A DNA stretch of 64,000 nucleotides, taken from Ectocarpus siliculosus. Taxonomy: Eukaryota; Sar; Phaeophyceae; Ectocarpales; Ectocarpaceae. The stretch covers positions 1,682,785 to 1,746,784 of the forward strand of contig FN649736.1 in assembly GCA_000310025.1 (NCBI GenBank), given 5' to 3'. The notes under the pieces were generated by a model that was not told where the DNA came from, did no database searches, and was given only the letters and a program-made list of their open reading frames with translations. Of the stretch, positions 33,650 through 64,000 are shown piece after piece; within the stretch, counting starts at the first letter, position 1; each line of letters starts with the position of its first letter. The translations under genes were made by a program, and so were the position numbers.

Positions 33650-36600
33650 CTGCGGTGAACCCGAAGTCCGCCAGCTTGGCATGCAGCCCATGCCCCTCCG
33701 ACTCAAATACCAAGACGTTTCCCGGCTTGATATCCCGGTGAACCAGTCCCATGGAGTGCATATGGTGGACCCCTCTCGCAAGGTCAACCACCAGCCTGCA
33801 AAGATAACGAAGGTAAACAACGGAAAGGGAGGAATGAGTCAGCGACCAGTCTTGACATAGTTGGTAGCACTGCAGAACTCAGGGAGGCTGAATCGACTTG
33901 AACACACCAGCTGGGTGTCTCGGACGATTTCGACGAAAAGCGCTGTCTACGCCGTCGCAGTCAAGGTGCTATCGCCATCGGCCCAGCAGCTTCCGCCTTG
34001 TCACGACGCACGACCGATCAATACGTTCAAAGTAGGTTACTTTTGGGACGGCCGACGTACCGTATTGGTGGCACTCGTGTGTGTGCAACGGCAGGGGATG
34101 TCGTCTTTACACAAACAAAGAAACACGCGCGACTCATGCCCGTGTATTGTTAGCACTCGACGCCTTCGGCTTCGCGCGGCAGTCGCGAGGGCATCCCCGC
34201 GATTCCTGCTGCCCTATCCCTCCCAGTACCCTGGCGTGGAGAGCAAACGCGCAAATCCCACATCCCAAACGTCCAAACACAGGTCCTCTCCCATGGTGCA
34301 ATCTCAATCTCACCGTGCGAACACCGTCATCTCCACCAACGCACAGAACCTCGCCGACATACTGGCGGCCTGGACGAGAGAGGTCGCAAGGCAAACGGGG
34401 TGTGAGGCGCGGCCGCATCCAACAAACCACATTAGGACTTGAGTGTTTTACATGCCCCTCACCTGGTTGGGGCCCAGCTGGAGGGTGTTGGCCGAGAGGT
34501 GGTCGGATTGTGTCTCAAGCGCAACACTTCTCCTTGCCAAACCTGCTCTCTCCACCCGTGCACACGTACGCAGCAAAAGTGGCAACGTCTAGACAGTGCA
34601 GCAGTACACGGCTCATCTGTGTCACGGTCTTCATGGCGAACGACTGGCCGGGGAGGCTGGCGTACGACACGTCGTCCACTCGTCCGAACGACCCGTACCC
34701 AAGCGGTTGCGCGAGCACCATAGGCATGTCCGCGGTCTTCAGGGCATTGACCGCGAAGCTCTGCACCTGACCGGAGGCACACACTTCAGCGAGGTTGGCC
34801 AGGAATAGGCGCCTGATGCTACCCCTTTGTCGCCATCCCCACCCGACTTGCCTCGACAGACTCGTCAAAGCCGACTGACGAGTCTGCTCGTCAGCTCGGT
34901 CAGTCTGTCCCACGGACGGCGCGCGGATCGAGGGCCCGTCTCCCGGCCCGGCCGTCGACGGTAGCCCTCCCGCCGCGACCGTCGCGGATCGACCCTCCGG
35001 AATACACGGAAGAGCTTCACCCTCCGCCCGAACGCCTCGCGAGAAGGCCTGAAGACCCTGAACCTGCTCTAACTCCTCTCCCTTCACCTCGGCCTTGGCC
35101 TCTAACGCCATCGATGCGATGCTGCCGTCCCGAGCCGTCGCTGCTGACGGTCCCTTGCCTGCGGCGATCCCCGATGGCGAGTCATCTAGGATGGAATTCA
35201 GCGTCTGGACCCGCTTCATCGGTGATGGCAACGGCGGACCCTTGCCTTCAGCCTTGGCCTCTAGAGTATGCGATGTCATGCCGTCCATGTTCTGCAACAC
35301 AAGCTTCTCCTGCCGCATGCCGGCGGCAACGTCTTCACATGTCTTGTCCTCCTTCGTCCAGAGGTGCTCCCCAACGCCAACCTGCCACCGGGCGACAGCA
35401 GCACGAGGATGTCGTTACAAGACAAAACGTTCGTTCATGGTCCACCAATGGACTCTTACGGTCGAAAGGCTATGTGAGGGGGGAGGGGACAATAAGGAAG
35501 CGCGGCGCCGACAAAGAGCTAGCTCTCAATGTGTCAGGGAACGCACAACAACGGGACATCACAACAGTGATCAGTACCTGAATGTGGACATTGCTGTTAT
35601 CGTAAGCGGGTTTCATGCGGGAGGGACACGACTATACCGCCGTGCATTAGCTGGAGTCTAGTGCTGCCAGCTGAAAACACAAGGTGTAGCTGCTTTCTGC
35701 CGTGGTTCTCTGTACAACGGAAGCGATTCTCTGCAAGAAGAGATGTACCCTAAAATCGACCGTGTTTTCCTAGTGCGAAGACTCTTGCTGCATGGGCACA
35801 AGGTGTTGATACATGTCAGCGTAACACGTAAAACAATCTGCATGTATCACCACCTCCCGTTGCGAGACCTCACCCCTTTCCCCTTCACCTCAAGACGGTG
35901 ATCGAACATATCGACACGCCCCTCAGCCCGCATAGCACGGCCCTCCAAGCCCGTCGCCTCCGCCCGCATGCCCTGGTCTGCGGTAGCACCGATCGTCCTT
36001 CCGGAACAGACTTCGCCTGAGAAGCGTTCGTCCCGTGGCTTGCTCTCGATCCGACTAAAGCCAGCGGCGGCCACGTACGAACCTTTCTCTTCGTCCATCC
36101 ACCACCCGGCCGCACTCTCGCGGTGCCCCACCCGATCGTTGCCGGCCTGCATCCTCTCTCGCAGCATGATTGGTTCATGCTGCCGCCCTTCCTGGTGCTG
36201 ACGGCTCGTCTCGCATGATTGACCAACTCGAGGCGCCGCCTCTCCCTCCTCCACGCCCCCCAGAAAGCCGAGAAGGCCGGCGGGTAGCAGAGTCCCCTGC
36301 TCTTGCCCCGCGTGTCCGGTTGTGAGGTTGGATGTGTGTGCCGACTCCACTACCTCTTCCTCCTCCATCTTCTCCTCTTCTTCACCAAGATACCCGAAGA
36401 GGCCCGTTGGCAACACTGCCCCACCACCCCCTTGCGCACGATCTCCAAAGCGTGCTGGGCGATGTGATGATTCTGCCTGCTCATCATGGCGGACTTCGGT
36501 GGTGTTGGCAGCAAGCGTCGCCATCAAGCCCACCGCGGCTTGCCGCCCCCTTTCTCCTCCGCGGTTGTCTCCGATGGCGTCGGCAGGTAGACACGCCTCC

Positions 36601-37866
36601 TCCCCCTGATGGACACCTCCAGAGGATACCTCGGGACGCGGTACGACATCGGTGGCGGCGATGGTGGGCATCCGGACCTCCGCCACCCTCTCTTCCTCCA
36701 CCTTTTCCTCCTCTGCACCCAAATATCCGAAGAGACCCGTCGGCAACACTGCCCCGCCCTCCTGCTCGACATCCCCAAGGCCTGCCGGGAGGTGTGATAG
36801 GTCGAAATCCTCACCATGGTCAAGTGTCGGCACCAAGCCCACCGCGGCTTGCCGCCCCCCTTCTCCTCCTCCGCGGTGGTCTCCGATGGCATCGGCAGGT
36901 AGAAACGCCTCCTCCCCCCTGATGGACATCTGCAAGGGGTACCGCAGGATGCGGTACGACATCGATGGCCGTGATGTTGGGCATCCGGGCCTCCGCCACC
37001 TTCTCTTCCTCCACCTTTTCCCCCTCTTCACCCAAACATCCGAAGAGACCCGGCGGCAACACTGCACCTCCATCCTGCTCGACATCCCCAAGGCCTGCCG
37101 GGAGATGTGATAGGTCGAAATCCTCACCACGGTGAAGTATCGGCAGCAAGCCCACCGCAGCTTGATGCGCCCCTTCTTCTCCTCCGCTGTTGTCTGCGAT
37201 GGCATCGGCAGGTAGAAACGCCTCTCCCCCCTGATGGACACCTGCAAGGGGTACCGCAGGATGCGGTACCACATCGACGGCCGTGATGTTGGGCATCCGG
37301 ACAACCGCCACTCTCTCCACCTCTTCTACACCATCCTCCAAGACACGGTTGAGGCCAGCATGATGTGGTGTCGCCGCAACGATCGCCGCTGCCCCAACTG
37401 GAACTCCAACATGATCAGGGGGTGGCCGTACTCGCGCCTCACCCTGGAGACCCCCACGACCGATGGCGGGAGAGGGCACCCGCCTACCTCGCCGGCCATC
37501 ACCGTTGGTATTGACAACGATTGCTGGAGCCTCCGCGGCCGATCCCTCCTCGATCTTTTCAAGGGCTTGGTTCAGGACAGCGGGACGTACTACCACCGCT
37601 CCTGTCGCTCCTGCCACAGCCCCTCCTTCGGGACCTCTGGTGGGAACAGGTGGCGGCGGGTCGCGTGCCCCTTCCTCCTCATCTCTGAGGTTAGCCGCTA
37701 CGGCCGTGTCGGCGGCTCGTGTCTGCCATGCCGGCAGCTTGCCCTTGTACCACCTCCAGGCACACAGGGCGAATACCCACACTAGTGCGACAGGCAAACA
37801 GGCCTGGGAAGCGGCGGCCAGCAGTACAACAGCGGTGAGGCAGCGATAGATTTTCGGATTTTCCAA
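33650..37866 (-). CDS. Membrane-anchored, repeat-containing protein kinase, probably incomplete
   Basis: Minus-strand exons: 37866-35874, 35381 to about 34620, one or more unplaced, and 33795-33650. Exons 1 and 2 join in phase 0. Exon 1 starts MENPKIYR, then a TM helix (residues about 9-37), a Pro/Glu-rich region and three to four repeats of about 105 residues carrying DLSHLPAGLGDVEQ and a VLPxGLFGYLG word. A one-base C-run difference near 36908 breaks the frame between repeats. Exon 2 carries the kinase Gly loop (PLGYGSFGRV) and the ATP-binding Lys (FAMKTV). The last exon carries HRDIKPGNVL and LADFGF (catalytic loop and DFG). No activation-segment APE or C-lobe was found before 33.05 kb, so the kinase may be truncated. 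Ser/Thr type is inferred from the loop. Confidence 0.68.
36290..37300 (-). repeat. Intragenic tandem repeats, about 315-335 bp
   Basis: The forward-strand word GGCAACACTGC marks units near 36408, 36741 and 37058, and a diverged one sits near 36290. Each encodes an acidic linker, an ARMPNITAIDVV-like block, a LPADAI block, DLSHLPAGLGDVEQ and a GLFGYLG word. Copies are 80-90% similar, so homogenisation or recent expansion is likely. Confidence 0.85.
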
Positions 37867-39227
37867 GGGTTAGACTGTAAGCGAAGTTTGGCGAAGGTCA
37901 CCGTGATATCGGGCTTGCTAGGATTGTCCAGACAACTTGCCTTTTCTTCTTGCGGATAGGTATACTTTCCGCAACATGTGGTGAAAGTTCTAAAGCGGCT
38001 GTTGAGGAGACTGCGGGCCTGCTGTAACTAGTCCGTTGAACCGGAGTCGTGACTATACATTCAAGAAGCAAGACGCTGTTTGTGTCCGCCAATGTTCATT
38101 CTGGACGTCGGGATATAATGCTGTCGGACGCAACAGCCGGGGTCACACAGGAGGAAGGCAAGTTTAAAGAGTTTATTGTGTCATTTTTCTCCACCTTCTT
38201 TACGTTGCTTTCTAACCTCTCTCGCGAGAACACTTCAGCCGTTCCTTTCCCTCTTCAAGCCGTACGTCGAAGTGTCACACAAACTAATCGCTGTCGGTAT
38301 TTGTTTGTGCATGCCTACAAGCAAGAATGTGCAACTGCGGCGAGCTTCGACCTCACGATCCAGATGTTACTAGATAGCTTTCAGGTGCATGCTGATGCTA
38401 TAGCATCCAGTACTGCTCAACCAACCCACTGCTTCTTTGTCACCTCGGCGTTTTTTCTCAAGAAGGGAGCCTGGGTCCTCTTGTTGCTGGTGTCGGCGGG
38501 GGCGATTCGGTCCTCGGGCAGCTGACGACGCCACCTGCAATGAAGGCGATCAAACATTAGGAGTGAAAGCGGTTCGAAGACCGTTGCGAAAACAGACGGG
38601 TGAATACAGCAATGTGCTGCAAACTTTAACTTGCTTGGTTATGGATTGAAGAAGCCATCATCGTGATGTGGCACGGACAAACTGCATGTAGCCTTCAGCA
38701 GAAACGACCATCGCGATGTGTCATGCGGAGACACTTTCGTACTTACGCATCCACATGTGTAACTGCGCTCCTTTTCCACCCTTGATTGGTGGCGCGCAAA
38801 TGTAAGGCAACAGAGTTTTCATACATGCTACGCTACTCATTTTAGCCTACCACGACGGCTGCCGCAGTACTACTGTACTGCAATCCGTTCCTCAATCTGC
38901 GGTGGAACCTCGTGTTTGAATGTCTGAGAAAAACCGGCCGCACTCACCCTGTTGTGTGCCACGATCGGTATGGTAGCACCATGACCCCGGACATCGGCCG
39001 CAAACCACCGAGCCTCCATACTGGGTGCCGTGTAGTAGCTGCCGCTACTTTTGGATTACGCTGGCGCCAGGGAGAGCAAGAAACATGAAGATGAGTTCAA
39101 CTTTGGGTTGGCAACTGGGTTGGGAGTTGTAGAGGGGGGGAAACTTGATTTTTTTCAAATATTGCGCCGCATGTTCCCTTTCGAACCCGGCCGCTGAAAC
39201 GGCCGCCCTCTGGACCAGGAACCGGGC

Positions 39228-48999: not shown

Positions 49000-51700
49000 A
49001 GAGCCAAGGTTGTCGGAGGGAGGGCACCGGTCAAGTTTCAGTGGAAGATCGAAAAACCTAGACCCCTGGCAGGGAGGAAGGAGGGGGCGATGATGACGCA
49101 CTTGCGGCGCCCTCGTCGCTATTTTGTGAGTGTGTTTTTTTCAGGAAAGCGCGCCAAACGTGGTCGCTCCGCTGGTCTATCTAGTTGGATAACCTCGCAA
49201 ACCTACAAGGAGCAGATCGTGGCTTCGATTCTCTCTTTTTTTTCACTTCGATATGAGAGGTGGGAAGCAATCAAAGTCGTGAGTGGAACCACCTCTGCCA
49301 AAGACCTCGTAGACGATGAAGTGTTCCGGGTGCGCGTGGCAAACGCGAGAGCCTCAACATGTTGTTGTGTTATGTCCCGGCAAGATACCCCGCGAACGGG
49401 TAGTCTTTTTTCTTTTAGTATAAAGAATTGTTACTATTATATTATTTATTATATATGAAGAATTTCCGGAGAGCAATTTCTTCAGGCGTTGTTGGAGAGA
49501 AATTCCGTCCACGAAAGAGCAAGCGGGGAAGTCGTCGCTACAGATAGCGCCCGCACTTAGACTAAGAACTTGGCAGTTAAGAAATTGAGACTCGAAAAAA
49601 TCAGAAGCTAAGAACTTGAGCACCATTTGTGAGCCCGGTTAAGAACCCCTACACTAAAACCCATATATAATAATGGCGATTTGTAGCCCACAAGAGGATG
49701 ATCAGCAACATAAGAACCCCAGCCTCGGCCGAAACTACACTAGAGGTTCTGAAGTGTGGGCGCCATCTGTATTCCTCCACGCGTGTGCATCAGACCGACC
49801 CCCCAAAATCAGCAATGAAACGGGCTTTTTTTCGTGCCCTACCAAAAACCTTCACGAGAAACGGGGGAGGATGTGTCTTCCGAGAGCGGTGTCCTGAGCG
49901 TTCCACCTACATATTTCGAGTTGTCGCAGTTCTTTTCATGTTTTCAAAAGCGCCCACCCCAAAACTTAAACACGTACCGCACCGAGGAGCGATCGATATT
50001 TCTGCTCCCAAACGCAATGTGAAGGCAGCAGCAACAACACCAACAACAACAACAACAATAGCAGCAAATGTCAGGGTAAACGGTTCGCTCACTCACCGAA
50101 GTGACGTCAGGGGGGGAAGGGAATCGCCTTGCCGTGCAGGGAGAGTCGAAGTAGTAGGAGGCTGCCAAGTAGGAGGCTGTCGAGAATTTTCATGTCGTTG
50201 GGGGGGAGTGGGGCGACGAAACGCCGTTTTGGGGGACGGGAGCGGTATTTGGTCGGAGAAGGCATGGACGTACATGTACGGGCTGCCACGGCAGGTTTGC
50301 GTAAGGTAAGGCGGTGGCTGTTATCGAGTAATGAGTGGTATTCCTGAAGAACCAGGTGTGCCATTCTACTTGTACTCAGGGCTCAGCTTGATGCTCCCAT
50401 TCTTTGTCCACGTGGCACGCACCGTGTTTGGAGTCGCAAGTGTACCGCCTTTCGTAGTCGAAGCGCATCCTCAGCGCGGCAGTCGAAGTCCTCGATGGCG
50501 CCGGGCTCCACCTGTCCTCCGGCGACACGGAGCACTCTTTCCATCCCGACGCCTTCCCGACGACGACGCCCAAGAACCAGAACACGGAGGGCACCAGCAA
50601 GCCGGAGGCAGCGAATGAAGGGGGCGTCGCCGGCCGCTTGCCAGGAGCCTGTTGTCGAGCGCAAAAACATGAATGAATCCAATACACTATCGCCAAGAAC
50701 CTTGGGGGAAATTTTAAGCACAGGAAGGTGCTTGTCACGCGATGCTCCTCTTGGTGCTGAAGACAAAGCCGCGATATCAATAGTCTACCGCGAGTGTGTC
50801 GAGATGTCGAGGTACAACGCTGGAAAATGCAGCTGCTTGCTACATAGATTGCATGCGATGTATGTGGACTAGACCTGACGGCAGTGTAATAAGACACACT
50901 AGTTCCGGCAGTGTGTCCTCTTTCACGTGGCACCAGCTCAGCTACTGGACCCTTGGTATGATGATTCAGTCTACATGTACACCGGTGTCTCTCCTGTTTC
51001 GTACCCGAGGTCGGTCTTGTTTCCTGCATGACTTGAACCAGCAGTACCGAGCGATTGTAAAGGGTGTACAGCGGTACAAAGTAGTTCTTGGTTCTCATTT
51101 TCTGTGTGAAGTAGTATTTTTGTAGCGGCTGTCATCCCTCATATTTCAGACTCCAGCAAGCTCATTCAATAAGTAAGGTTCTCAACGCTCACTGCTGCAA
51201 AGAAGGCACCGAATCCCATCGAGTTTGTCTCGACCTGCGGGGCCATTTGCGGTCGACATCTGGGGTAGTGGCGTCGTAACTTGAGGAGCGTTGATTCAGG
51301 CGGGATCCAAGATCATGAATAATTTGATGCTGCTGGGAGTCGCTGCGATATACAGATGGAGTGATACTTCATACATGTACTTGCTGTGGGTGCCTGCCGG
51401 AGAAGCTAGCTCGCTTGGATCAACAATAGGTAGCTGTCCATTCACATTGAGTAGGAGATGTTCTTGCTGAGCTTGTGTGATGCTTGACCTGGCGCGCGCC
51501 TTGGCGCGAGACACACACAACTGCATCCAGAGCAGTCCGGGCAGGCGGAGCAACAAATCAAAATCAAAATTTTAAAATTTTACACCAAGACACACTTTGA
51601 ACACACCCGTCCGCGTGCCGTCTTGGACCTCTAGGGCAACAAGAGGAACGAGAGGTTGGACAGATGTACAAGCACAACCACGACTAAATCACCAGCGCTG
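49000..51700. other. Possible 5' exons of the PC-esterase gene, unresolved
   Basis: The minus strand at about 50670-50430 is open, follows an acceptor GACAACAG and contains a donor CACG|GTGCGT near 50423. One frame holds words such as GWKECSVSPEDRW and RFDYERRYTCDSKH, the kind of Cys/Trp content seen in PMR5 N-terminal regions. I could not phase it to the 48967 exon. A second minus-strand candidate lies at 51800-51920, ending at a GTGCGT donor. The remainder shows nothing I can name. Confidence 0.25.
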
Positions 51701-52000
51701 TTGGAATACTGCGGAAGCCTAGACAGTTCCAAACAACGCTTCCTCGCGAAAGAAGTGCTTGATGAGCAGAGTATTTCCCGAACGGGGAGCAACGGTAGTT
51801 AGACTCCGTGGTTGACGCACCTGTTCCGATGTTGTTGAAGTTGCTGGCGCCATGGCGATACTCTTCCGTTTCCCGGAACTCGTCCACGGTACCCAGTAGG
51901 AGATCCTGGCGTAAACCGTCTCCCTGTCCTCACTGCTGCACGCTGTGATGGTGTGCTGTTGTGATGGTATGATGGCCAAAATGGCGGTGTTCTGGATGTG

Positions 52001-52466
52001 CTCAGAACAGGGGCGTGTCTGTGCAGCCAAAGACCGACGGGTGCGTCACGGAACTTGGGCAAGATATTCTCAAGATTTTCGCACTATCAATCAAGCACAC
52101 GAAAACACGCCCGCATCCCGTTGTGCCCGCCCTGCTGCCTCGTTTGTCTAACTGGTGCCCACACCGCTCAGGCCTGGTCGCTGTACACCCAGACTCAGAC
52201 CTCGGACACATAGCCGGACCTAGAGGGAGGGCGAAGATCCGCAGATTGGCGAAATGGACGAAGATATTTCGACCTCTCGTTCCTATTGAAACCGATGAAG
52301 TCCGATCTCGAGCAAGTTTCTTTTTTATTTTTCTTAATATATGACACAACGAATCCATCTCTATCATAGAAAAGAGTATTTTGTTCTGCCGTTTTCTTTG
52401 GTCTCAAAGAAGAGAAAAGAACAGAAAGGAACACAGAATAACATAATAAGCGGACCGCGATGTATG
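52001..52466 (+). repeat. Dispersed repeat, copy 2
   Basis: This is the second copy of the repeat at 3322-3727. It carries an extra block of about 80 bases (52298-52378, AT-rich) not in copy 1, and lacks some of copy 1's A run. Blocks on both sides of the extra block align well, so it is either an insertion here or a deletion in copy 1. Confidence 0.7.
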
Positions 52467-53356
52467 TATAAATCATCCTATTTATATCTGAATCGTATGC
52501 ATATTCTCATATTCTCTTCAAGATTCAAGACTGATAAATACCCCGAGGAGACACGGAACAACCCCGGATGAAACACTCGATCGACTCGATCAACCCTTCG
52601 TGTCCACACAAGCAGCACCTCGACAACCAATAATGCCGAGCAGCAGCAATGTTCTCTCTCTCCCTTCACACTCATGGCACCCTCCTCGTACATTATTCAG
52701 GAATTCTTATCGACCTTATATTCCCGGACAGAGGGAGATGATATGCCTATTATGCATACAATCACTGAAAGCTAGACTTCCCGTTACGAAGTAGGAGTAG
52801 CAATACCCCAGTCAAGGCGATGTAGGTTGAAGTTGTGCCGTGAGAAAAATGGGACAAATTTTAAATGGGTACACATTTCGGACAAAGAAGGGTGGGTACC
52901 TTTCGGACAAAAAAAGTGGGTCACAAAGAGAGCAGACAAAGTAACGGTGAGGACGTATGAAAACAAATAGACTATATGATGAGTAGATTCCCGGTGGGTG
53001 AAGCCCACCGGAAATAATTTCGGACAAATTGGGCAGCAACCTGTTGAGGCCTTGCGCGCCACGGCTGGCTGGGTGCTGTATGTAGGGCGAAGACGTGCCC
53101 GAAAGCAAAGTAAAAAAAGTTGATGTGCATGCATGCTATATGCATCGCATTGATTGGCCCTGCCCAGTTTTCCATGCATGCATCTGCTGTTGGGATGTAA
53201 ACCCTGTGTAGGCTGTATCCCTGCCAGTGGCCACCGTGTAGTAACGGTGTGCAGAGGCTCACAGAGTGACTACTGTACAGTACACTTGTGTTGATGATAT
53301 GGTTGTATTGGCGCTTAGTTGGCCGAAAGTAGAGAAGGAGAAAAGAGAGAAGAAAG

Positions 53357-53359
<3 letters not shown>

Positions 53360-53390
<31 letters not shown>
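53360..53390 (+). repeat. (GA)n microsatellite
   Basis: An uninterrupted GA run of about 31 bases lies in purine-rich flanks. Confidence 0.95.
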
Positions 53391-53394
<4 letters not shown>

Positions 53395-53893
53395 AGAAGA
53401 GAGCGCGCTCTCTTCTCGAGAGGGGGCGAGCACCACGGGGGCGAGCCATCCCCTGTCATCACGGAAAGGAAACACACACGGACGGGTGATTGCAACGTAC
53501 CGATCACGGTAGTAGACGGTTAATCCGACCTATGGCAACGTTACTAGAATATCCTATTGGACACAGTCCGGTGACTAGACTTCTACAAGTAAGTATGGTT
53601 CAATGTAAACCCATAGGTGTGTACAATGATCCGATCACTGAATCAATAGACTATACCGAAGATTACCGGTATTACTCCTTAGGTAAGTACCTACATACGT
53701 GTGGTGTACAGCAGTAATCCTAATGACTGACATTGAATATTCCAACATCTGCATTGGAATGAATGATATCTTGAGTGCTTGCTATGCCCTGTCACGAGCG
53801 GTCTCCGCAAACCAAATTTTCGAGTACCCACCTTTTTCAGTCTTGGAAGTGGGTATACCAACTTACTTTTTTTGTCTACTTTATTCCCACCAC

Positions 53894-53924
<31 letters not shown>

Positions 53925-53925
53925 C
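53894..53925 (+). repeat. (TATC)n microsatellite
   Basis: Eight tandem copies of TATC are followed by GTATGTATG repeats. Confidence 0.95.
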
Positions 53926-54957
53926 TGTATGTATGTATCAAGCGACCAAGACAGATTCAGATACTTACTTAAGATAAACAAACACGAAGCGAAGTCCGGG
54001 ATGAGTACCAATCAACCAATAATCTAGAGGATAGTCCTGTGTTCCTTCATCTTGCCCTGCACACATGTTCTTTCGTTTACTTCCTTCTTCGTTTGTTTGC
54101 GTGCTTTCTTTCCTCGATTTTACCGTTGCTCTTCGGTTTTGTTGCCTTTTGACTGGTCCTAGGCTGACGGTATCGACGGCGACCTGGTTGTTGTCTATGA
54201 GATTCTAACTTTTCTCCCCCTCGCTCCCATAGTGCACGGCTGCCTGTCTGTCCCTTCATTTATTTCGTGGCTGGGGTTACTTCCTCCGTCGACAGCAACA
54301 TGTTCTCGGTTAGGGTGTGGAAATGCCGTCTGTCTCTTCTGGCCTAAGAGCGATAGAGCGTATTTTTTCTTCGCTTTTTCGCTCGGCAGTCCTCTCGGCG
54401 AATCCATGTGCGGGTGGGTGTTTATTGTCAGATTATCAGCATCGACCGCGCTAGCCGCTGACCAATGAAAAGACGTAAGTTTCACTGCGGTTGAAAACAG
54501 AACAAAGATGCTTCTAAAAGCCATGATCTGAGACCCCGTGAGGGGTCAGGAGAAGGCTAAACAACTAACTCTCCGGGAAAGAGGCAAGAGGCAGAAGCTA
54601 CAGAAGCTACAGAAGCAACAGAAGAGAGCCGCACGTGTCTATCAAGGCTTCCACAGTGCTCGGGCGGGTGCGGGTGTGGTCGCCAATCTACAGCAATTTT
54701 CTTCTCTCTATCCCTGCCCTATCGCACGACGTCCCACATGAAACACTGCCCAATCTAAATATTATTACCGCCTGCGTTCACCGTCCTTCTTCATCGTGCA
54801 ACGGCGAACGAACGTGCCACCCATCTCTGAAACCCAAACAAGCAACAAACATTTCGTGAAGCGCGGCATGGCGTACGTACGTGAAAACAAAATAAGACAC
54901 ACGCTCCAAGCAGATGCTTGCCTCTGTTGATCGCGAGACAAGAAGAAAACGAGGCAT

Positions 54958-55668
54958 ATGTCGCCTCACGCCTCGTCACAGCCTGTTTTGGATGACCGAC
55001 GTGACTCGTCGGCGCCGAATACAGTCTTGTGGTGTGGGCGAAAGGCCGACCAGACTTCGGGTGTCTCACGGACGTTCGCCCCGATGTCTACGCCCCCCGG
55101 AGGCATGGCTTCGGCTTCTCCCACCGTTTCGGCGGCTCCGGGTGATCTCGTCAACCACGCTGGAGCACAGGGACCTTCGGGACAGCCGCAGGCCCGCCGC
55201 GGTGGCTCGAGTACGCTTGTACCCACCGCGCCCCCTCCGGACCCCTCGCGACGTTCCTCTACGGAGCACCAACGTCGCACGGTGCTGACTGCACCGCCGT
55301 TGCCGAGCGCAAGTAACGGTTTCCCCAAATCGGAAGGTTCATGTTCTTTCTCACGAAATAGCGGTCCAGAGCCTCCCGCGGCCGCTGACCATGTTGGTCG
55401 AGCGCCCGCGATGAAGGCCGCTTTTAATGAACAGGCCTACGCCGACGTTTTGCGCGAAAACGCCCGCGTAGACCGCTTGGTTTCGCACGCTTCTGCGACT
55501 GGTTCACCGCTCTTGCCTGCCTCTCCTCGTAACCCACAATCCGGCCCGCCTTCGGGCGGCACCCAGATTGTCCTGCCGGTTGCCGGTGCCATTTCTCTTG
55601 ATGATATTTCTTCGGGGAAGGTAAGCGCACCCGCGCGGCAGGCCCCTGTTTTTGACGGTTGTCAGTAA
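54958..55668 (+). CDS. Gag-like N-terminal region of the chromovirus
   Basis: The open frame of 236 codons ends at TAA 55666-55668. It is Ser/Pro/Ala rich and probably disordered for 140 residues. A short helical segment follows (FNEQAYADVLRENARVDRL near 55425-55480) and then another Pro/Ser-rich part. No capsid fold or CCHC knuckle is visible. Its place upstream of the protease in the same frame argues for gag. The stop is a single-codon break, since the same frame continues straight into the NADAR domain. The ATG at 54958 is the first in frame, and an earlier start cannot be excluded. Confidence 0.6.
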   Translation: MSPHASSQPVLDDRRDSSAPNTVLWCGRKADQTSGVSRTFAPMSTPPGGMASASPTVSAAPGDLVNHAGAQGPSGQPQARRGGSSTLVPTAPPPDPSRRSSTEHQRRTVLTAPPLPSASNGFPKSEGSCSFSRNSGPEPPAAADHVGRAPAMKAAFNEQAYADVLRENARVDRLVSHASATGSPLLPASPRNPQSGPPSGGTQIVLPVAGAISLDDISSGKVSAPARQAPVFDGCQ

Positions 55669-55686
55669 TACAATAACGATGAGGTT

Positions 55687-56139
55687 TTCCTCTTTTGGAA
55701 ACCGCCGTCCTTTCTGTCTAACTGGACGCCCTATGAGTTCTCGGTTCATGGCATTCGATACGTGTGCGGCGAACAGTTCATGATGGCGGAGAAAGCCCGC
55801 ATTTTCGGCGATGATGCCGCTTATGCCAAAATCATGGCTGCCTCCGACCCGAGAGAACACAAGTCCCTTGGTCGCAAGGTACGCGGTTTTGACCATGCTC
55901 TATGGGAGCTCCGGCGCGAGGATGTTGTCTTTTCGCTTTTGTATGCGAAATTCGCCCAAAATGCTGACGCGCGTGAACGATTGTTGGCTACGGGTGATAG
56001 ACAGATAGCATAGGCCAGTCCTTATGACGGATTGTGGGGCATTGGTGTTGATGCCTCCGATCCGCGTGCGGCGTCGCCCTCCAAGTGGACTGGTGAAAAC
56101 CTCTTGGGCAAAGCGCTTGTTGCGACGCGCGCGCTCCTG
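55687..56139 (+). CDS. NADAR (YbiA-like) domain embedded in the retroelement
   Basis: About 150 codons in the gag/protease frame match the NADAR family block by block: FLSNWTPYEFSVHGIRYVC (the F-S-N...P start), GEQFMMAEKARIFGD (conserved Glu and the A-x-K-A Lys), LGRKVRGFDHALW (G-R-x-V-x-G-F...W), LLYAKFAQN, ERLLATGDRQIA, then ASPYDGLWGIG and ENLLGKALVATR. NADAR proteins act on ADP-ribose-linked metabolites, and some remove ADP-ribose from guanine in nucleic acids. One TAG at 56011-56013 replaces the codon, usually Glu, just before A-S-P-Y-D. Everything else looks intact, so loss is recent or the stop is read through. Family assignment is from recalled motifs, not a search. Confidence 0.88.
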
Positions 56140-56870
56140 CGTGTGCGCCCGGTCGAACCCGATAAGCCTTTACGCCCTGAACACTCGGGGCAACCTGCTC
56201 CCATGTGTCCCACTATCCACAAAATTGCGCCCCCGGGTGAGGACTCTTCGGTCAATGATTCCTCGCCCGAGGACGCGCGCGGCCCGCTGGACGTGCCAGC
56301 CAACACGCCCGCGGACCACTTGAAACAGGTGCTGCATATTGCCTCTGCTGCTTTTCGCGAAGCCGCCGCTTCCTCACCGCCGCTATTGGCGGAACACGGC
56401 CCAGATTTGGTGAGCGGTGATGTTTTTGTAGATTGCGATACCTCTACGACGCGAGTCCGCGTTCATAGTGGTACCGGAGCCGTGTGTACAGCGCCTGGTG
56501 TAGCCCTTTTGGACTCGGGCTCACCTTCATCTTTCATTAGTGATGCTTTCCTTGAAACCATGGAGGCGTCAGGAGCTGCATCTGTCCACAGTCGTCGTTC
56601 GGTGCCCGTTCGGCAGTGGGGTGGTTTTGGCTCTGGAAATGCTCTTGAAACCACCTCATCCGTACGGCTGTCCGTTCAATTTTTTTATGGTGATAGTGTG
56701 CCACCGCTTCGTTAGCGGTGTGGGTGTATGTTGTCCCAGCTGCCGCCATGGGTCATGCCCTCCTTCTTGGATGTGATAGTTGGATGCGTTTTAACTCTCG
56801 TTTGTCCACTACTTTGCCCACGCGGTCGGCAAGTGGACGCATTATGGAGAAACTTTCTCTGTCATCGGAT
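56140..56870 (+). pseudogene. Retroviral-type aspartic protease of the chromovirus
   Basis: After a hydrophilic linker, VALLDSGSPSSFIS at about 56503-56544 carries the D-S-G active site (Asp codon at 56512). The flap-side block and the second hydrophobic block, VVPAAAMGHALLLGCDSW, lie at about 56733-56786 but in another frame. A -1-type change is needed near 56705, next to the TAG at 56713. Such proteases act as dimers and cut the Gag-Pol precursor. The frame change could be decay or an assembly indel. Confidence 0.8.
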
Positions 56871-57544
56871 TTTGCGGCGGGAGCTTCCGCGTATGTCGCT
56901 GGACCCTCCGCCCCCGGGGCATCTTACTTCCTGCGGTACGCCGGCAGGAAGGGTGTCTCCCTTTCCGATAAACCCACTTTGACGAGGGTGAACCTCGTTC
57001 GCAACTCTGGCACCCCTGCTCTCACCGGCAACTATCTTGTCACGTTTTTACCGAAACACGGCGCCCTCTCGGCGTCGGACGCGTTTGTTTCGGACGGGCC
57101 TCAACACATCCCATTGACAGGGTGCGCCGAATTGGAGCCAGGTGAGGTGTTTGGAGTGGCGACTGCCCCACTTGTGCAGATTCCGCTTGCGTCGATTGAT
57201 CCTACACCGCAGACGGCCGAGGGTGTTGGGTTGAGTGACCCTCCGCCGCCAGCCCGTTCCGCGGATGGGCCGCCGTCTCGCGTGAATTCTTTGCATGCAA
57301 ACATCCCGGTTGCGGATCTGGAGCTCTCGGATTCTCCCGCGGCCTCACTGCCGCCGAAACCGCCGCCACCGGATCTGTTGGAACGCCTCTCAGAAGCGCA
57401 GCGAGTGAGTTTTCGCGAGTTGTGGCAACGTTTGCCTGCACATTTGCACGATGTGACTTTTGATTTACATGACTCGGGTTGGACCCCGGTCACCGTCCGA
57501 TTTCGGTTGCTGTTCCGTGAAACCGTTTCGTTTGGAAGTGCCCC

Positions 57545-58380
57545 CGGGAACGAAACCGTTGGCCTCGCATCCCTATAGGCTCAACCCTCTGGTGGAGAAA
57601 AAGGTCGATGCAATTCTCGATCAATACCTTGCTGCCGGTCTTATTCAGCACTCGCAATCGCCGTGGGCGAGCCCTCTGGTTGTCATGCCTAAAAAGGACG
57701 GTAATCTGCGTTTGACCGTGAACTACAAAAAGCTTAACAAATTGTGCAGCCTTGGTCAACAACCGCAGCCGCGAGTTGACCACATCATCGATTCCCTGCA
57801 CAAGGGCAAGGTGTTTTCCATTTTCGATCTTAACTCCGCTTTCCACCAAATCACCGTCGAAGAGGACACGGTTCAGCTTACGGCGTTTTGTACGCCCACG
57901 CAACTTTTCGAGTGGCTCCGTATGCCTCAGGGAAGCTCCGTGGCACCGTCGTGTTTCACCATGGTCATCAACGAAGTGGTTAAAGGTCTGGACCATGTGC
58001 TTGCATACCTGGACGATGTGATTGTGTTTGACGCCGACCCCATCCACCATGTCGCCAACATACGGCTATTTTTGGAGCGTTTGCGCAAGTTCAACCTCAA
58101 GCTTTCTCCTTTCAAGAGTCGCGTCGGCGCTAAGGAGGCTGTTTATTTAGGCCACACAATCTCCCCTGCGGGTGTTAGTCCTCGTGCCGATAAGGTCGAA
58201 GCCCTCACAAAAATGCCGCTGCCTAACAACGTCAAAAAGCTGCGTTCCTTGCTGGGTGGGCTTTCGTATTACCGCAAATTCATCAAGGGTTTGGCCATGC
58301 GCGTGAAACCACTCACAGACCTTTTGCGTAAGGGCGCGAAGTTTTGTTTTACGCCGACTATGGCGGATACCTCTTGGCGA
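57545..58380 (+). CDS. Ty3/gypsy reverse transcriptase
   Basis: The frame holds PLASHPYRLNP, then AGLIQHSQSPWASPLVVMPK and KDGNLRLTVNYKKLN (fingers), VFSIFDLNSAFHQI (motif A Asp), MPQGSSVAPSCFTMVI, AYLDDVIVF (motif C, the Asp pair at 58012-58017), FKSRVGAKEAVYLGH and a thumb ending LLGGLSYYRKFIKG. All catalytic Asp residues are present. The region upstream to 57460 lies in another frame (0 to 1 near 57530). The downstream change to the RNase H frame occurs near 58360. Within these limits the RT is uninterrupted. Confidence 0.95.
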
Positions 58381-58389
58381 AAGTGTCAG

Positions 58390-58810
58390 AACCTCCGGTT
58401 TTGGCTTTCCCGGATTGGGACGCTGTCGCAGATGGCAGCCGCCCTCTCCGGCTTTGCTGTGATGCCTGTATCGATGGTTTTGGTACGGCCCTTGAACAGG
58501 AACAGGCCGATGGTTCCATCCGTCCCATTCTGTTCGTTAGCCGCGCTACGCTCGAATCCGAGCGCAACTGGACAGTGCTCGACTTGGAAGCTGGAAGTAT
58601 CGTGTGGGCAATTAAACGCTTACGCGGCTATTTTTGGTCTACGCACTTTCTGATTTATTCGGATCACAAGGCTTTGGAGAGCATCGTCAAGGTGGGTGAA
58701 CACAACGCCCGCGTCCAACGTTGGCTCGAGTTCCTTTCCTCGTTCAATTACACCCTTGTCTACCGCAAAGGCACTGCCAACGCCAATGCGGATTTTCTTT
58801 CGCGGTTGCC
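58390..58810 (+). CDS. Gypsy RNase H domain
   Basis: The frame starting at 58344 holds PPVLAFPDWD, RLCCDACIDGFGTALEQ (first Asp), NWTVLDLEAGSIVWAIKRLR (Glu), YSDHKALESI (Asp) and RKGTANANADFLSRL, the usual end block of Ty3-type RNase H. It degrades the RNA strand during reverse transcription. All active-site acids are seen. The domain joins RT only after a one-frame change near 58360. Confidence 0.92.
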
Positions 58811-59845
58811 CTTGCCGGCAACCGACACGGATAGACACGGTGACACCAGTATCGCAGTCGATGACGCCGCGGGCGTGTATCTCATTCGTGCGTGCGGACG
58901 GAGTTATCACTCTAGTTCGACGCCGAACATCGGCTTGGGTGGGCTTGACATTGACGATCAACGAGACGCGTTGGCACACGCGCCTCTGACGGAGGATGAC
59001 TTTGGAGACTTCCGCCGTTTTGGGCCACATATGGTCCTGCCGGCTCTGTCGCCCTCCTCCGTAGTTGATTCGTCGAAATTTTCGCCGCCTGGTGTTTTCG
59101 CTGTCGTTTGCGATGCAGCCCCCGAGAGTTCTGTGCCCGATGGACCTGCTCCGGCTTCTGTTTCTGCGGAGACAGACGTCGCTCCCTCGTCCACCGTCGG
59201 AACCTGCTCAGCTGCCCTGTCGCTTTCGCGTGGCCCTCTGATTTCTTCTCGTACCCGGGCGAGAACGAATTCGGCCTCGGGCATGGCTCATAGCCGTCCC
59301 AATTATTTTCCGAAACAACCTCGGGCCGTTGTGGTGCCCAGACCGCCGCGACCTCCTCGAACACCGGCCCGGTCGAGCCGTGCCGCGCGGTCTACGAGAA
59401 CCGTGGGTAGCCCTACTTCTGGCCCGCTGCCTTCTTGGGCGCTGGTTGAAGTGCAGCCGCCGCCGCCCGCGCCTGCTGCCGCCACCCCGGCGCCACCGCC
59501 GCCCGCGGCGCCCATGCCGCCAGTGTTGTCGCCCGCAGGTACTAGCCCTGCGACTTCCGTGGTGCCGCCCACGGCCGCTGAGGAAGCTCACCTCCGCGAC
59601 TGTGTGCATACATTCTCGCATGCCGATTGGGCCCGAGAACAGCTGTCAGAAAGTGAGTGTGTCGCGGCTATACATTTTTTGTCTTTGGGATCCCCGGCGG
59701 TTTTGCCGGATACATTCTGGGATTGCTTGACCTGTGCGCAACGGCCGGCGTTGTCTGATGTTGTCGCCTTCGCAGACGATGGTACGCGATTGTTGGTGCG
59801 AAATTCTGCCCCACTGCCTCTCGGTAGTTCGGGCGGGCGTATCAC
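58811..59845 (+). CDS. Long Pro/Ser/Ala-rich linker between RNase H and integrase
   Basis: About 340 codons are open in the RNase H frame. The middle is dense in Pro, Ala, Ser and Arg (for example PPPPAPAAATPAPPPPAA near 59457-59510). Short ordered-looking parts occur before and after, including CVHTFSHADWAREQLSESEC near 59600. In typical Ty3/gypsy elements this spacer is under 100 residues. No domain is recognised. It could tether the polymerase and integrase or hold an unrecognised fold. Confidence 0.6.
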
Positions 59846-61050
59846 TCGCCTCCCGCCTTTCGAAGACTCCGCGCATATACGTGCCTATGCTATTGCGACC
59901 TTGGGTCCTACAAGCATGTCACGCCACCGCGTCTTTTCACCTGGGCACCGCTCGGACTTTACGTATGTTGGAGCGATTTTTCTGGTGGATTGGGATGGAT
60001 TTGTCCGTTCGTTGGTGGCTTCGGCATTGTTTAATTTCCCAAGCGCGCAAGACTTCCCGGCAAACGTATCGTTGGCCTACGCTCACTCTGCCCCTCCCGA
60101 ATGGGCCGGGTATTGTAGTGAGCGTCGATTTTTTTGGGCCATTGCCGGTCACGTCCTGTGGGAATGCATATATACTTTTGTTTACGGACCGTTTCAGTCG
60201 ACGGGCGGATATGTATGCCACTACCAAGGCGGAATTTACCGCTAAGGGAACGGCTAACATTTTCGTCAACCGCTACATGGCGTTGTGGGTTTGTCCGGTG
60301 ACTCTTCTTTCGGATAACGGTATGCAATTTTGTTCCAAGTTGTCCATGGCTATTTACGGGTTGATGAAGATCAAGAAAGTCACCACCAGTTCGTACCACC
60401 CCCAAACTAACGGTGGGGCCGAGCGTGTTAACCACACCATGGCTCAAATGCTTGCTGTTGTGGTCAATGAGCGTCAGGACGATTGGGACGTCCATCTTCC
60501 CCATGTCGAGTTTGCATACAACAACTCGGTAAACACCGCCACAGGTTTGGCGCCAAATGAAGTGCATATTGGACGGTTGCCCCGTCTCCCGCTTTCTGTT
60601 TTGGACCACCCTAGCGTGGGTGGCCATCAAAGTTTGGATCGAGACCAGCTCGTTTTCTGCAATCTTGCGGTGGAACGCCAGAGACGAGCTTACGCGTTGG
60701 TGCGGGAACAACATGCGATTACGGTGTCGCGTGTCGAACGTCGTAACTCTGCACTGTTGGACGGTCTGCGTCAGATCCCGAAATACGAAGTTGGTGGTTG
60801 GGCTTGGGTCTACAACTCTGCCGCTACTATTCGGCAGGGTGTGCGGAAACACACCCATGATTCGGTGCTCAAAGCGAAGCTTTCGCTCAACTACACCGGA
60901 CCATATAAAATCCTTGCTGTTGGCCCGGCTAAAGCGGAGGATTCACCGGATGGAAAACCTGTGGAGCGCAAACTTCTCTACCTGGACCTGCCGTCAGACA
61001 TGCTGGGACCAGAATCCCGCAACCGTGTCTCCGTCTTGCGGTGCAAACCG
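59846..61050 (+). CDS. Integrase, DDE type, with partly altered zinc finger
   Basis: The frame continues to 61809. The N-terminal HHCC-type finger reads HATASFHLGTARTL...WWLRHCLISQARK: both His and the first Cys are present, but the second Cys position holds Ser. The core has the three acids: Asp at 60127 (VSVDFFGPLP), Asp at 60313 (LLSDNGMQF) and Glu at 60421 (NGGAERVNH), with 35 residues between the last two, the D-D-35-E spacing. After the core come blocks like VGGWAWVYN and LNYTGPYKILAV, typical of the GPY/F module of chromoviruses. It inserts cDNA into host chromatin. The region is uninterrupted and likely functional except for the Cys change. Confidence 0.94.
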
Positions 61051-61159
61051 TGTACCAACCCATACGACACGGATGACCTGCCTAAGTATATGCCGGCCAA
61101 TCTGTCGAAATATGTTTTGCACTCGTATAGTAACAAGTCTCCCCCGTATAATTTGACTG

Positions 61160-61350
61160 CTGATGATATTTTAGCGGAGTCTAGTCGTCTGGATGTTGAG
61201 AATATTTCAGGACACCAAATTGTACGTGGACGCGGTGGTGTGGTAGCTGTCTTGTACCTGACTCATTGGATTGGTTTGTTGACACCGTCGTGGGAAAGGG
61301 AGTCTGATTTGCAGGAATACAGAAAACACATTCTGCTTTACTGGTCTGGT
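61160..61350 (+). CDS. Chromodomain at the integrase C-terminus
   Basis: In the integrase frame, DDILAESSRLDVENI, VVAVLYLTHWIGLLTPSW and ERESDLQEYRKHILLYW follow the chromodomain pattern: a V-E-x-I start, a Y-L-x-x-W-x-G strand and a final helix. Chromodomains of this class guide insertion to marked nucleosomes. Aromatic cage residues are only partly recognisable, so it may be a chromoshadow-like or CHD-II variant. Confidence 0.75.
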
Positions 61351-61499
61351 AACGCTAGTCAGCGCATACAAGGAAACCGAGCTTATCGTAATGCTCGGAT
61401 AGCTTCGGCCGACCGAGAACTTGCTCGGAATCAGGCCGAACGTTTCATTGCTCCTGGGTACGAGTTGGTTTCGCGTGACGTTTGGTTGGCTCGCTTCTC

Positions 61500-61690
61500 T
61501 GTTTCTGTTTTGCCCGTGGGAGCCCACATTTGGTACAAAGCTTTGGATGGACTTTGGTGGCTTGGGCAGATTAGTAGTTTCGTAACAGGCCAGTACATTG
61601 TTCGATTTTTGGACACCCCCGGCCCTCGAAAGCTTTCTCTCCCAGAGTATAGTTACTCCACGGCTTTGGATGCTCCTTGTGGTTCTTGGT
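61500..61690 (+). CDS. Tudor/Agenet-like module after the chromodomain
   Basis: VGAHIWYKALDGLWWLGQIS and YIVRFLDTPGPRKLSLPEY give the alternating-strand pattern of a Tudor barrel: V-G-x-x-x-W...G-x-W-W-x-G-x-I, then Y-x-V-R-F-x-D. This is a histone-tail or chromatin reader fold. The call is by pattern only. The frame then runs on to the TGA at 61807. Confidence 0.55.
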
Positions 61691-61809
61691 GCTTGCAAAA
61701 ACACCGTACTCGTGGTTTGACCAACCCTTCCACGGATGATGGCGTTACGTCGCGAACACCAGGCGTTGTGGCACAGCTGGCTGTTGCCCCATCTGGATCT
61801 GTGCTTTGA

Positions 61810-62499
61810 TATCATGCCGCCTACGGGCCGCTACATGTTTCTTATGTTGTGTTCTACATCGTACGCAGTGGTACGCTAGCGCGTGTTTGGGTGGTGTGAG
61901 CTTCTTCCATTGTTGCAATAGTCACCCCGACCTTTGCGTGCCCAACGCGACCGAACCCCATTTTGATTCAGATTGGTTCCGTCGTTGGCGATGTGATTCT
62001 CAGTAGTCATCACTGTGTGGTGTGGGGATGGTTTGGAGTATTTGTCGGGGATGAAATATTTTCTCTGACCCTAGTTGCTTTTATTTTATCTTATTTTGTC
62101 TGATTTGGACAGTCGCATCTTCGATCTTTATTTGAGGTTGAGTATTGGATTGACGATAAAGTATCTGCATCCACGACTTCCCAGGGTGGGCTAATGTAAT
62201 GGAGCAACTAGTGTATTTGCATTGTACGAGCGTTTCATGAACGTTGTATGAGCGCTTATTGGATATTTTGAATTTTCTTTGGATATGGATATTTGGCGAC
62301 GTTGAGGGGTATTGAAGTAGCTTGAAGGAAGATCAAAATCCCAGCCCCGCTCCCTCACTCTCCGAGTGGGCGCTGAGCGGACCTGGTCTAAGAAGGCTAA
62401 AACAAGAGATCAAACAACAACTGTGAGTACCCGAAGCCAGGAGCAACGAACTTGCTCCCTTCTCTATGTTATTTCTCTGTTCCTCCATAACAACAGACC
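61810..62499. other. 3' flank of the chromovirus, LTR not identified
   Basis: The 690 bases after the pol stop are AT-rich in 62040-62300 and unlike any sequence upstream of the element that I could match by eye. A donor-like ACT|GTGAGT lies near 62419. This stretch may hold a diverged 3' LTR. Confidence 0.3.
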
Positions 62500-62855
62500 A
62501 TCGTCATCATCACAAGAAGAGCAGAACACGCCCATGACAAAAATACTCCCGGCATCTACGTACAGCCTCTGATGAAAGTGTCAGAGTCGACGCACGAGTT
62601 CTCAACACCCCGACTATTCACCGCTATGCCTCCTACGGCCTAACTCCCCCCATCCAGCCACATGCCGGTCGGTATCATCTCCTGTTCCCCGAAAATATGA
62701 TACGCCAACCCCGGCCGCAGCCAATGCCGCAAACCACTCTCAACACCAACGAGGCAGGAGGTCTACAAGTTTCGCTCGATTCCCAGAGCATCACATATAG
62801 ATACGACTGGGCATTCATTGTCCACGGCGCCACAGCGGATCGCAAGAGTGGCTAA
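62500..62855 (+). pseudogene. Coding-like segment with one frame change, unrecognised
   Basis: After an acceptor ATAACAACAG near 62497 one frame reads protein-like words (EHAHDKNTPGIYVQPLMKV). After a shift near 62620 a second frame continues (SYGLTPPIQPHAGRYHLLFP, ITYRYDWAFIVHG) to a TAA near 62855. An opposing minus-strand frame at 62993-62763 (DLATLAIRCGAVDNECPVV) is equally open, so the strand is uncertain. Confidence 0.25.
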
Positions 62856-63219
62856 ATCTCCTGGTAGTACACGAGGAACTCTGCAAGGTCGCGTGCGAAA
62901 GCAACCTTCATGACCCCCCAACAAACCCTTAGCCGCCAGCATGACCGCAACAGCAAAATATGCTCCCCTCGTTGAATCATCATGCCGCGACACAGGCTTA
63001 GCCGCAGTTCGCCATCTTCGAACCCACTACCCAGATCCAAAACCATCCAACAACGTTTTCTTCCCCTCCACCACAAAAAAAAAACATGAACTCTTCAGCG
63101 TTAGGAATGGCTCGAGCACAATCGATAGACACCAGGCACGGATGAACTTGCTGGTAAGCGTCGAACTACTGTACGGCTAACTCAAGAAAAACACTCGAGG
63201 ACCTCCGTCGAGACCCCCC

Positions 63220-63522
63220 CTATCCCCCACGCCCGGGCTCCTCCACGGGTTGTTCTGAACCCTTGTTCACTTCGGCGAGGTGGGAGGTAAACTGGACGAG
63301 AAATTCCATGTCTTCCCTGGTCTCAGGGTCGACCGCCAGGAGGGACGGGAGTACCCCGACAAGCTGATGGTTTGGACAAGGCAAATAGGACAGCGGGAAG
63401 AGCAACATCGCGATAAGCTTTGGAGAACCCAACAAGTCATGGCATTGATGCAAAAAACCCTGCGGAGCAAGTTCTGCAACCAACCATGCCCATCTTCCCC
63501 CTCTGCTGGTCATTTCATTCAT
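63220..63522 (-). CDS. Possible exon of an unrecognised protein
   Basis: This minus-strand frame has strong G/C third-position bias in its last 70 codons (words PNHQLVGVLPSLLAVDPETR and EDMEFLVQFTSHLAEVNKGS) and ends at a TAG. A splice acceptor may lie near 63440. No motif or partner exon was found. Confidence 0.35.
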   Translation of the reverse strand: MNEMTSRGGRWAWLVAELAPQGFLHQCHDLLGSPKLIAMLLFPLSYLPCPNHQLVGVLPSLLAVDPETREDMEFLVQFTSHLAEVNKGSEQPVEEPGRGG

Positions 63523-64000
63523 CGCTGCTTGATGCGGATCTCGCGAGGTGTACCGTTCCCTTTCGAGATGTTTTCACAGGAACTGGACGCAAGCAGTCAC
63601 AGACTGTCTCATAGAGGAAAAAATGGCAAATCGGAGTGACGATGAAACGCGAGTCGTTCATGGCGTCTTGCAATGGCCAGAGAGAGAGAACGGTTTATCA
63701 GCTGCGTTGGTCACGATTCAACGGGCGGACGGCACGCTACTGCATTCACCTTCTCGGACGATTCAAGCGTCGGGTCAAGCTTGTCGGGTGCAAGCCACGC
63801 CATGAAAGACCCGTCTGCCATCGTCCTCCTGGAAACCTCGAACTACCGAGGCACAACAAGGCAGTGAATGAATGACGGGAGTGGAAGGGGGTCCTCTCAA
63901 CATTCACATGGCAATGAACCACGAACACAATTGGAGCCGGAACGCACCCCCTTCTTCCTTCTAACCTATACTCAAGGCTATTCCACGCGGAGGGAACGGA

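What the first reader, a model, noticed from the sequence alone, without database searches (positions are those of the whole stretch)
55687..56139. A NADAR (YbiA-like) domain captured inside a Ty3/gypsy chromovirus, between gag and protease
The domain is in the same frame as the gag-like region upstream and the protease downstream, and nearly every family block is preserved, including the Glu and Lys near GEQFMMAEKA and the closing LWGIG/NLLG blocks. Established knowledge: NADAR enzymes are linked to ADP-ribose chemistry and some reverse guanine ADP-ribosylation by DarT-like toxins. Inference: the retroelement carries an enzyme that removes ADP-ribose from its own RNA or cDNA, a counter-defence against host ADP-ribosylation, or one that processes NAD-derived caps. 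I do not know of a described retrotransposon with this layout, but cannot exclude that it has been noted.
Basis: partly seen in the sequence, partly recalled or inferred. Interest (0 to 1): 0.92.

Follow-up and report, generated by a model that had tools for sequence, protein, structure and literature searches.

The report
Algal retrotransposon with a NADAR domain
A broken copy of a brown-algal jumping gene carries an ADP-ribose-removing type of enzyme domain; relatives in the same genome keep that domain intact-looking, but its presence in such elements was already reported in 2025.

Summary
The NADAR domain is real (PF08719, window 55693-56142, 159.5 bits with one stop inside) and no chance insertion. 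The genome has at least 150 NADAR matches; 121 of 150 have a gypsy reverse transcriptase 1.1-3.1 kb downstream. Six element groups carry it. Between families NADAR is about as conserved as RT, the flanking linkers are not. The three residues needed for guanine-ADP-ribose hydrolysis are kept in all 28 other copies read.

The window copy is dead: 5'-truncated, frame-broken, with a stop at the third catalytic position. In relatives a large Gag ends at an in-frame TGA-C and NADAR opens Pol behind it (18 of 28 copies).

The architecture is published: Dinatale et al. 2025 (PMC12477816) report NADAR at the N-terminus of Pol in one of four Ectocarpus Gypsy lineages, and say that these chromodomain-bearing lineages are not related to chromoviruses. 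Verdict: true, conserved, interesting, already known. The likely role, removing ADP-ribose from guanines of the element's RNA or cDNA, is untested.

The parts
54955..62492 (+). decayed, 5'-truncated Ty3/gypsy copy (window family, here called B)
   Evidence: homology to other genomic copies starts at 54955 (23 of the 41 other rows begin at exactly that base; 7 of the 41 belong to another repeat) and ends near 62492; two blocks 97.5% and 97.0% identical to L036 over 55077-62492
55002..55004 (+). counterpart of the gag stop codon (TGA followed by C); out of frame with NADAR in this copy
   Evidence: TGAC invariant in 6 of 6 aligned junctions
55693..56142 (+). NADAR (YbiA-type) domain; stop at 56011-56013 at the position of the third catalytic residue
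   Evidence: PF08719; residue mapping
56431..56559 (+). aspartic protease, LLDSGSPSSF motif
   Evidence: RVP_2 E 0.0033, 17.7 bits, under the curated cut-off of 20.3; motif by eye here, by pattern or by eye in relatives
57688..58161 (+). reverse transcriptase RVT_1
   Evidence: E 9.7e-31
58437..58745 (+). RNase H (RT_RNaseH)
   Evidence: E 5.9e-28
59881..60054 (+). integrase zinc-binding domain H2C2
   Evidence: E 9.2e-12
60100..60402 (+). integrase core rve
   Evidence: E 1.7e-7, 31.9 bits, just under the cut-off of 32.6
61195..61341 (+). chromodomain-like stretch at the end of integrase
   Evidence: PF00385 E 0.065, 13.6 bits, under the cut-off
62194..62492 (+). 3' LTR; no 5' LTR found in the window
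   Evidence: matches both LTRs of L036, which are 97.3% alike; no direct repeat of 40 or more in 51500-64000

Best explanation
The window holds a dead copy of a Ty3/gypsy element from a lineage, in an Ectocarpus-like brown alga, whose intact members encode Gag and, past a UGA-C stop, a Gag-Pol whose first folded domain is a YbiA-type NADAR enzyme. Shown: the domain, its fold by prediction, its catalytic residues in other copies, its conservation over several families, and the Gag / TGA-C / NADAR-protease-RT-RNaseH-integrase order in one frame. Inferred: ribosomes read through UGA at low rate, so NADAR enters the particle together with Pol; there it removes ADP-ribose from guanines of the element's RNA or cDNA (a lesion that would hinder reverse transcription or translation), which counters host or environmental ADP-ribosylation.
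Against: No activity, substrate, expression or particle data. No DarT match in this genome, in a search blind to introns, so no guanine-modifying host enzyme is identified; other transferase families were not searched. No RNA structure behind the TGA better than shuffles in 5 of 5 junctions; in Tca2 of Candida, which also has gag-UGA-pol, the junction alone did not drive readthrough in yeast (PMC2194720, abstract). For phage NADARs others argue that soluble ADP-ribose derivatives are the main substrates (PMC9503650, passages). 29 of the 150 listed RT matches have no listed NADAR upstream (both lists are capped).
Confidence: 0.45

Rival explanations
1. The element's NADAR acts on small ADP-ribose compounds or on by-products of RNA processing and repair, not on modified guanine in the element's own nucleic acid.
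For: Proposed for viral NADARs (PMC9503650, passages) and, as processing of RNA intermediates, for these very elements (PMC12477816). The family also includes N-glycosidases of riboflavin intermediates (PMC9503650).
Against: All NADARs tested in PMC11833690 reversed guanosine ADP-ribosylation of RNA (passages), and the element domain keeps the ADP-ribose-contact residues of the oomycete enzyme.
Confidence: 0.3
2. The domain works as a binder of ADP-ribose, steering the integration complex to ADP-ribosylated chromatin, alongside the chromodomain-like end of integrase.
For: Chromodomain-like stretch at the end of integrase, weak by profile; published as putative chromodomains (PMC12477816).
Against: Strict conservation of the catalytic Glu residues is more than binding would need (inference); NADAR lies next to the protease, far from integrase.
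Confidence: 0.12
3. A passenger captured and carried without function.
For: The window copy has a stop inside the domain, as do 21 of the 150 listed matches, the window included.
Against: In the pair where dS can be measured best, dN/dS in NADAR is nearly as low as in RT; 129 of the 150 listed matches have no stop inside.
Confidence: 0.03

Closest known systems
NADAR-bearing Gypsy lineage of Ectocarpus, e.g. Gypsy-12_Ec32 (Dinatale et al. 2025, Genome Biol 26:320, PMC12477816)
   Same: Ty3/gypsy element of a brown alga with a YbiA-type NADAR at the N-terminus of Pol and a putative C-terminal chromodomain; highly conserved over the families of one lineage
   Different: No difference found. Their consensus sequences are in supplements that I could not open, so the window family is not matched to a named family. 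Additions here: the TGA-C gag-pol junction, residue mapping, selection figures, and an intron-bearing host relative.
NADAR domains in ORF1 of Tx1 LINEs of the oyster Crassostrea gigas (as reported in PMC12477816)
   Same: NADAR inside a retrotransposon protein
   Different: non-LTR element, ORF1, divergent domain
Orchid Gypsy elements with an AlkB-type m6A RNA demethylase ORF (PMC9289625, passages)
   Same: a Ty3/gypsy lineage that carries an enzyme erasing an RNA modification; shown active in vitro there
   Different: different chemistry, additional separate ORF, recent acquisition in Phalaenopsis orchids
NADARs in polyproteins of positive-strand RNA viruses (PMC9503650, passages)
   Same: NADAR embedded in a replication polyprotein
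   Different: RdRp viruses, not reverse-transcribing elements
P. nicotianae NADAR 8bau and E. coli YbiA 2b3w
   Different: cellular proteins, not part of a Pol; sequence identity 35% and 29%
Tca2 of Candida albicans (PMC2194720, abstract)
   Same: gag and pol separated by a UGA stop
   Different: fungal element; potential 3' pseudoknot there, no structure better than shuffles here

Membership tests
NADAR / YbiA (PF08719) | profile match over the curated cut-off | tested here: met
   159.5 bits against 35.1 for the window stretch; 103.7 and 38.1 in its two open pieces
NADAR / YbiA (PF08719) | fold | tested here: met
NADAR / YbiA (PF08719) | catalytic Glu, Lys and the YbiA-type second Glu (E43, K50, E125 of P. 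nicotianae) | tested here: met
   28 of 28 copies other than the window; the window has a stop at the E125 position
NADAR / YbiA (PF08719) | hydrolysis of guanine-ADP-ribose | not testable with these tools
   needs an enzyme assay
Ty3/gypsy (Metaviridae) LTR retrotransposon | order protease-RT-RNase H-integrase | tested here: met
   RVT_1, RT_RNaseH, H2C2 and rve in that order in 5 natural open Pol frames (rve under its cut-off in L022), and RVT_1 and RT_RNaseH in L036; protease by motif only
Ty3/gypsy (Metaviridae) LTR retrotransposon | LTRs | tested here: met
   L036 has LTRs of 295-298 bases, 97.3% alike; the window keeps only the 3' one
chromovirus | C-terminal chromodomain on integrase | tested here: inconclusive
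   PF00385 E 0.0055, 0.065 and 0.12 in three copies, all under the cut-off
chromovirus | RT within the chromovirus clade | not tested
   no reference RTs at hand; PMC12477816 states that the chromodomain-bearing Ectocarpus lineages are not related to chromoviruses
Gypsy-12_Ec32 lineage | NADAR at the N-terminus of Pol in an Ectocarpus Gypsy element | tested here: met
   the host is Ectocarpus-like by inference: P0003 and P0008 of Ectocarpus sp. CCAP 1310/34 are 95% and 93% identical to the family-A domain
Gypsy-12_Ec32 lineage | sequence match to the published consensus | not testable with these tools
stop-codon readthrough gag-pol | in-frame stop between gag and pol in a leaky context | tested here: met
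   TGA-C in 18 of 28 copies, from families A, C, E and F; a zinc knuckle lies upstream in frame in 10 copies, out of frame in 2 (L002, L028), and is not found in the DNA held for 16. That UGA-C is leaky is recalled.
stop-codon readthrough gag-pol | 3' pseudoknot or stem-loop | tested here: inconclusive
   z-scores from -0.80 to 0.51 in 5 junctions; pseudoknots not modelled

The most novel reading that the evidence does not exclude
An LTR retrotransposon lineage carries, packaged with its Pol by UGA readthrough, a dedicated guanosine ADP-ribosylhydrolase that repairs ADP-ribosylated element RNA or cDNA. This implies an unrecognised nucleic-acid ADP-ribosylation defence against retroelements in brown algae, perhaps fought with a domain taken from the host's own NADAR gene.
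Probability: 0.25. Interest if true: 0.88.

Novelty: already known. Interest (0 to 1): 0.5.

Why it matters
A retroelement that keeps an ADP-ribose-erasing type of enzyme under selection about as strict as that on its reverse transcriptase points to ADP-ribosylation of nucleic acids as a pressure on retrotransposition. Natural roles of nucleic-acid ADP-ribosylation in eukaryotes are poorly known, so these elements are a handle on that question. They parallel the orchid Gypsy elements that carry an RNA demethylase. The presence of the domain is published, its function is not, and the TGA-C junction and the intron-bearing host relative make the delivery and the origin of the domain testable.

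Tried and rejected
Chance insertion into one copy: rejected, six groups carry the domain at the same place. Upstream ORF as gag: rejected. Gag-less family, suggested by L036 where the LTR abuts Pol: L036 looks like an internal deletion, because other family copies match the window further upstream and L002 shows a zinc knuckle upstream. RNA structure as a readthrough signal: no support. A DarT source of guanine modification: none found.

A bacterial origin, as suggested in PMC12477816: unresolved. In the careful tree the elements and the brown-algal stand-alone NADARs lie on one side of a branch with weak support 59/88; element monophyly is not rejected, p-AU 0.48. In the first, quick tree the rows that I had labelled as elements do not form one clade. 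P0083, which has NADAR followed by a protease motif, falls outside both element clades, which speaks against a single capture. The leader FDxTREY shared by elements and brown-algal genes is only suggestive: it could be judged in few proteins and P0023 shares part of it. Labels: P0008, P0010, P0011 and P0018 were called elements by my own judgement (P0010 has the protease motif). Rows left out: 6 for short segments; in the careful tree also 15 named rows and those numbered above P0066 other than P0083. One search listed 120 of 139 matches; P0128 came later and is in no tree.

One search failed on a pattern that was too narrow; the corrected script is, where protease and NADAR-protease linker figures cover only 3 of 5 representatives. 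The alignment is not reliable in the low-complexity start of Pol. Foldseek proper was not run because the machine was busy; the second-look tool was used instead.

Full report
What is there. The window lies in a 189 Mb, 492-contig genome. At 55693-56142 there is a full NADAR domain, 159.5 bits, with one stop inside, inside a Ty3/gypsy remnant of about 7.5 kb (54955-62492). RT, RNase H and both integrase parts follow it, the integrase core just under its cut-off; the protease is weak by profile but has its motif.

The copy is dead. It is cut off at the 5' side: 23 of the 41 other rows start matching at exactly window base 54955 (7 of the 41 belong to an unrelated repeat). It has no 5' LTR that the searches show, two stops before and in NADAR, and the homology to a family-A Pol changes frame four times between 56.7 and 59.9 kb. 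One of the stops sits at the position of the third catalytic residue.

It is one of many. A search with PF08719 gave 150 scored matches, all over the cut-off, out of 230 candidates; 21 of the 150 have a stop inside. A search with the RT of family A gave 150 scored of 418 candidates. Of the 150 NADAR matches, 121 have one of these RT matches 1.1-3.1 kb downstream on the same strand, median 2072; 29 do not, and 29 of the 150 RT matches have no listed NADAR. Both lists are capped, so unpaired items are not proof of absence. I read 28 copies closely: L001-L008 are the eight best NADAR matches, L017-L036 were chosen by me for long open frames, so they favour intact copies. By eye they fall into six groups, A to F; the window belongs to B. 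Polyproteins of this make-up also turned up outside this genome: P0004, P0005 and P0128, organisms not named.

Anatomy of intact members. Five natural open Pol frames of 2,345-2,579 codons read, in order: low-complexity N-terminus, NADAR, protease (by motif), RT, RNase H, integrase zinc finger, integrase core. A chromodomain-like stretch follows, under the curated cut-off in the three copies tested. Upstream lies a large Gag, at least 1,081 codons in L037, with a CX2CX4HX4C knuckle. Gag ends at TGA followed by C, and the codon after the TGA is in the frame of NADAR and Pol. A TGA-C at that place is seen in 18 of 28 copies (A 7, C 6, E 4, F 1). The other 10 are decayed there, lack upstream DNA (L031), or have lost gag (L036). 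Family B copy L002 has an in-frame TGA-C too, among other stops, and the window has it out of frame. The knuckle is in frame upstream in 10 copies, out of frame in 2, and not found in the DNA held for 16. TGAC is invariant in 6 of 6 aligned junctions from five families, with few other fixed bases. UGA-C is known as a leaky context (recalled, no call). Folding of the 100 bases from the TGA is no better than shuffles in 5 of 5. Tca2 of Candida has the same gag-UGA-pol layout, and its junction alone did not direct readthrough in yeast (PMC2194720, abstract), so bypass remains an inference.

Selection. Five representatives with long open frames give 10 pairs. Amino-acid identity is 53-80% in NADAR, 57-91% in RT, 67-93% in RNase H, but 19-43% in the N-terminal part; the NADAR-protease linker, measured in 3 pairs, is 25-41%. 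Synonymous sites are saturated in most pairs, so ratios are rough; in the closest pair, E-F, dN/dS is 0.06 in NADAR, 0.04 in RT and 0.52 in the N-terminal part. Within family A, pairs with dS about 0.1 have dN of about 0.01 (0.008-0.019). Relationships by pairwise identity agree between NADAR and RT (A with B; C, E and F together), which suggests that the domain has travelled with Pol since before these families split; no formal test was made.

Origin. The genome also has a stand-alone NADAR gene in four pieces that I read as exons (L041), related to P0013, P0014, P0017 and P0020, with a Cys/His-rich start. One or more of these relatives is among the six best non-element matches of every family, together with environmental sequences of unknown source. 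In the careful 65-row tree two element clades are well supported (99/97 and 96/87). Their union is not rejected (p-AU 0.48), and elements plus host genes form one side of a branch at only 59/88; P0083, with a NADAR and a protease motif, lies outside both clades. So capture from the host, capture from bacteria, more than one capture, or domestication of an element domain all remain open; the bacterial origin suggested in print is not established.

Prior work. Of the papers listed by searches for NADAR with retrotransposon, ADP-ribose/YbiA, Gypsy/DUF1768/polyprotein, LINE/Crassostrea and transposable element, one describes NADAR in such elements: Dinatale et al. 2025 (PMC12477816; abstract, first part of results section 5 and passages read, supplements not available). 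[quoted passage not shown] Its main text does not contain 'readthrough' or 'stop codon'. A nearby precedent in kind is the orchid Gypsy lineage with an active RNA demethylase (PMC9289625, passages).

Verdict. The counter-modification idea is plausible and testable but unproven. Anatomy and conservation I hold at about 0.97, catalytic competence of intact copies at about 0.75, and action on the element's own RNA or cDNA at about 0.35-0.45.

Noticed in passing
L041 (host contig C24:2124900-2127400, minus strand): Stand-alone NADAR gene of the alga in four pieces read as exons, with a Cys/His-rich N-terminus; 82.8-95.2% identical to P0014 over the first, third and last pieces and about 62% over the second. 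An Ectocarpus NADAR protein, Esi0017_0056, raised stress tolerance in Arabidopsis (PMC7922944, one section and passages read); whether it is this gene is not known.
   Followed up: partly
P0006 and P0007 (proteins found): Very large proteins with NADAR of other kinds: 3614 aa with OTU, NADAR, DUF4326 and a phage-integrase match under its cut-off; 2912 aa with DprA and NADAR. Possibly other mobile or viral polyproteins.
   Followed up: no
L036: Copy of the window family in which the 5' LTR abuts the Pol start, with no gag: an internal deletion, possibly non-autonomous.
   Followed up: partly
window 26848-28266: Ty1/copia-like RT and RNase H open frame on the + strand (by eye).
   Followed up: no
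window 34515-35414 and 35847-37869: Minus-strand open frames: one holds a protein-kinase-like glycine loop, the others hold imperfect repeats around MPNITAVDVVPHPAVPL (by eye).
   Followed up: no
window 53417-53749: Dispersed repeat, 82-84% identical in 7 other listed places, upstream of the element.
   Followed up: no
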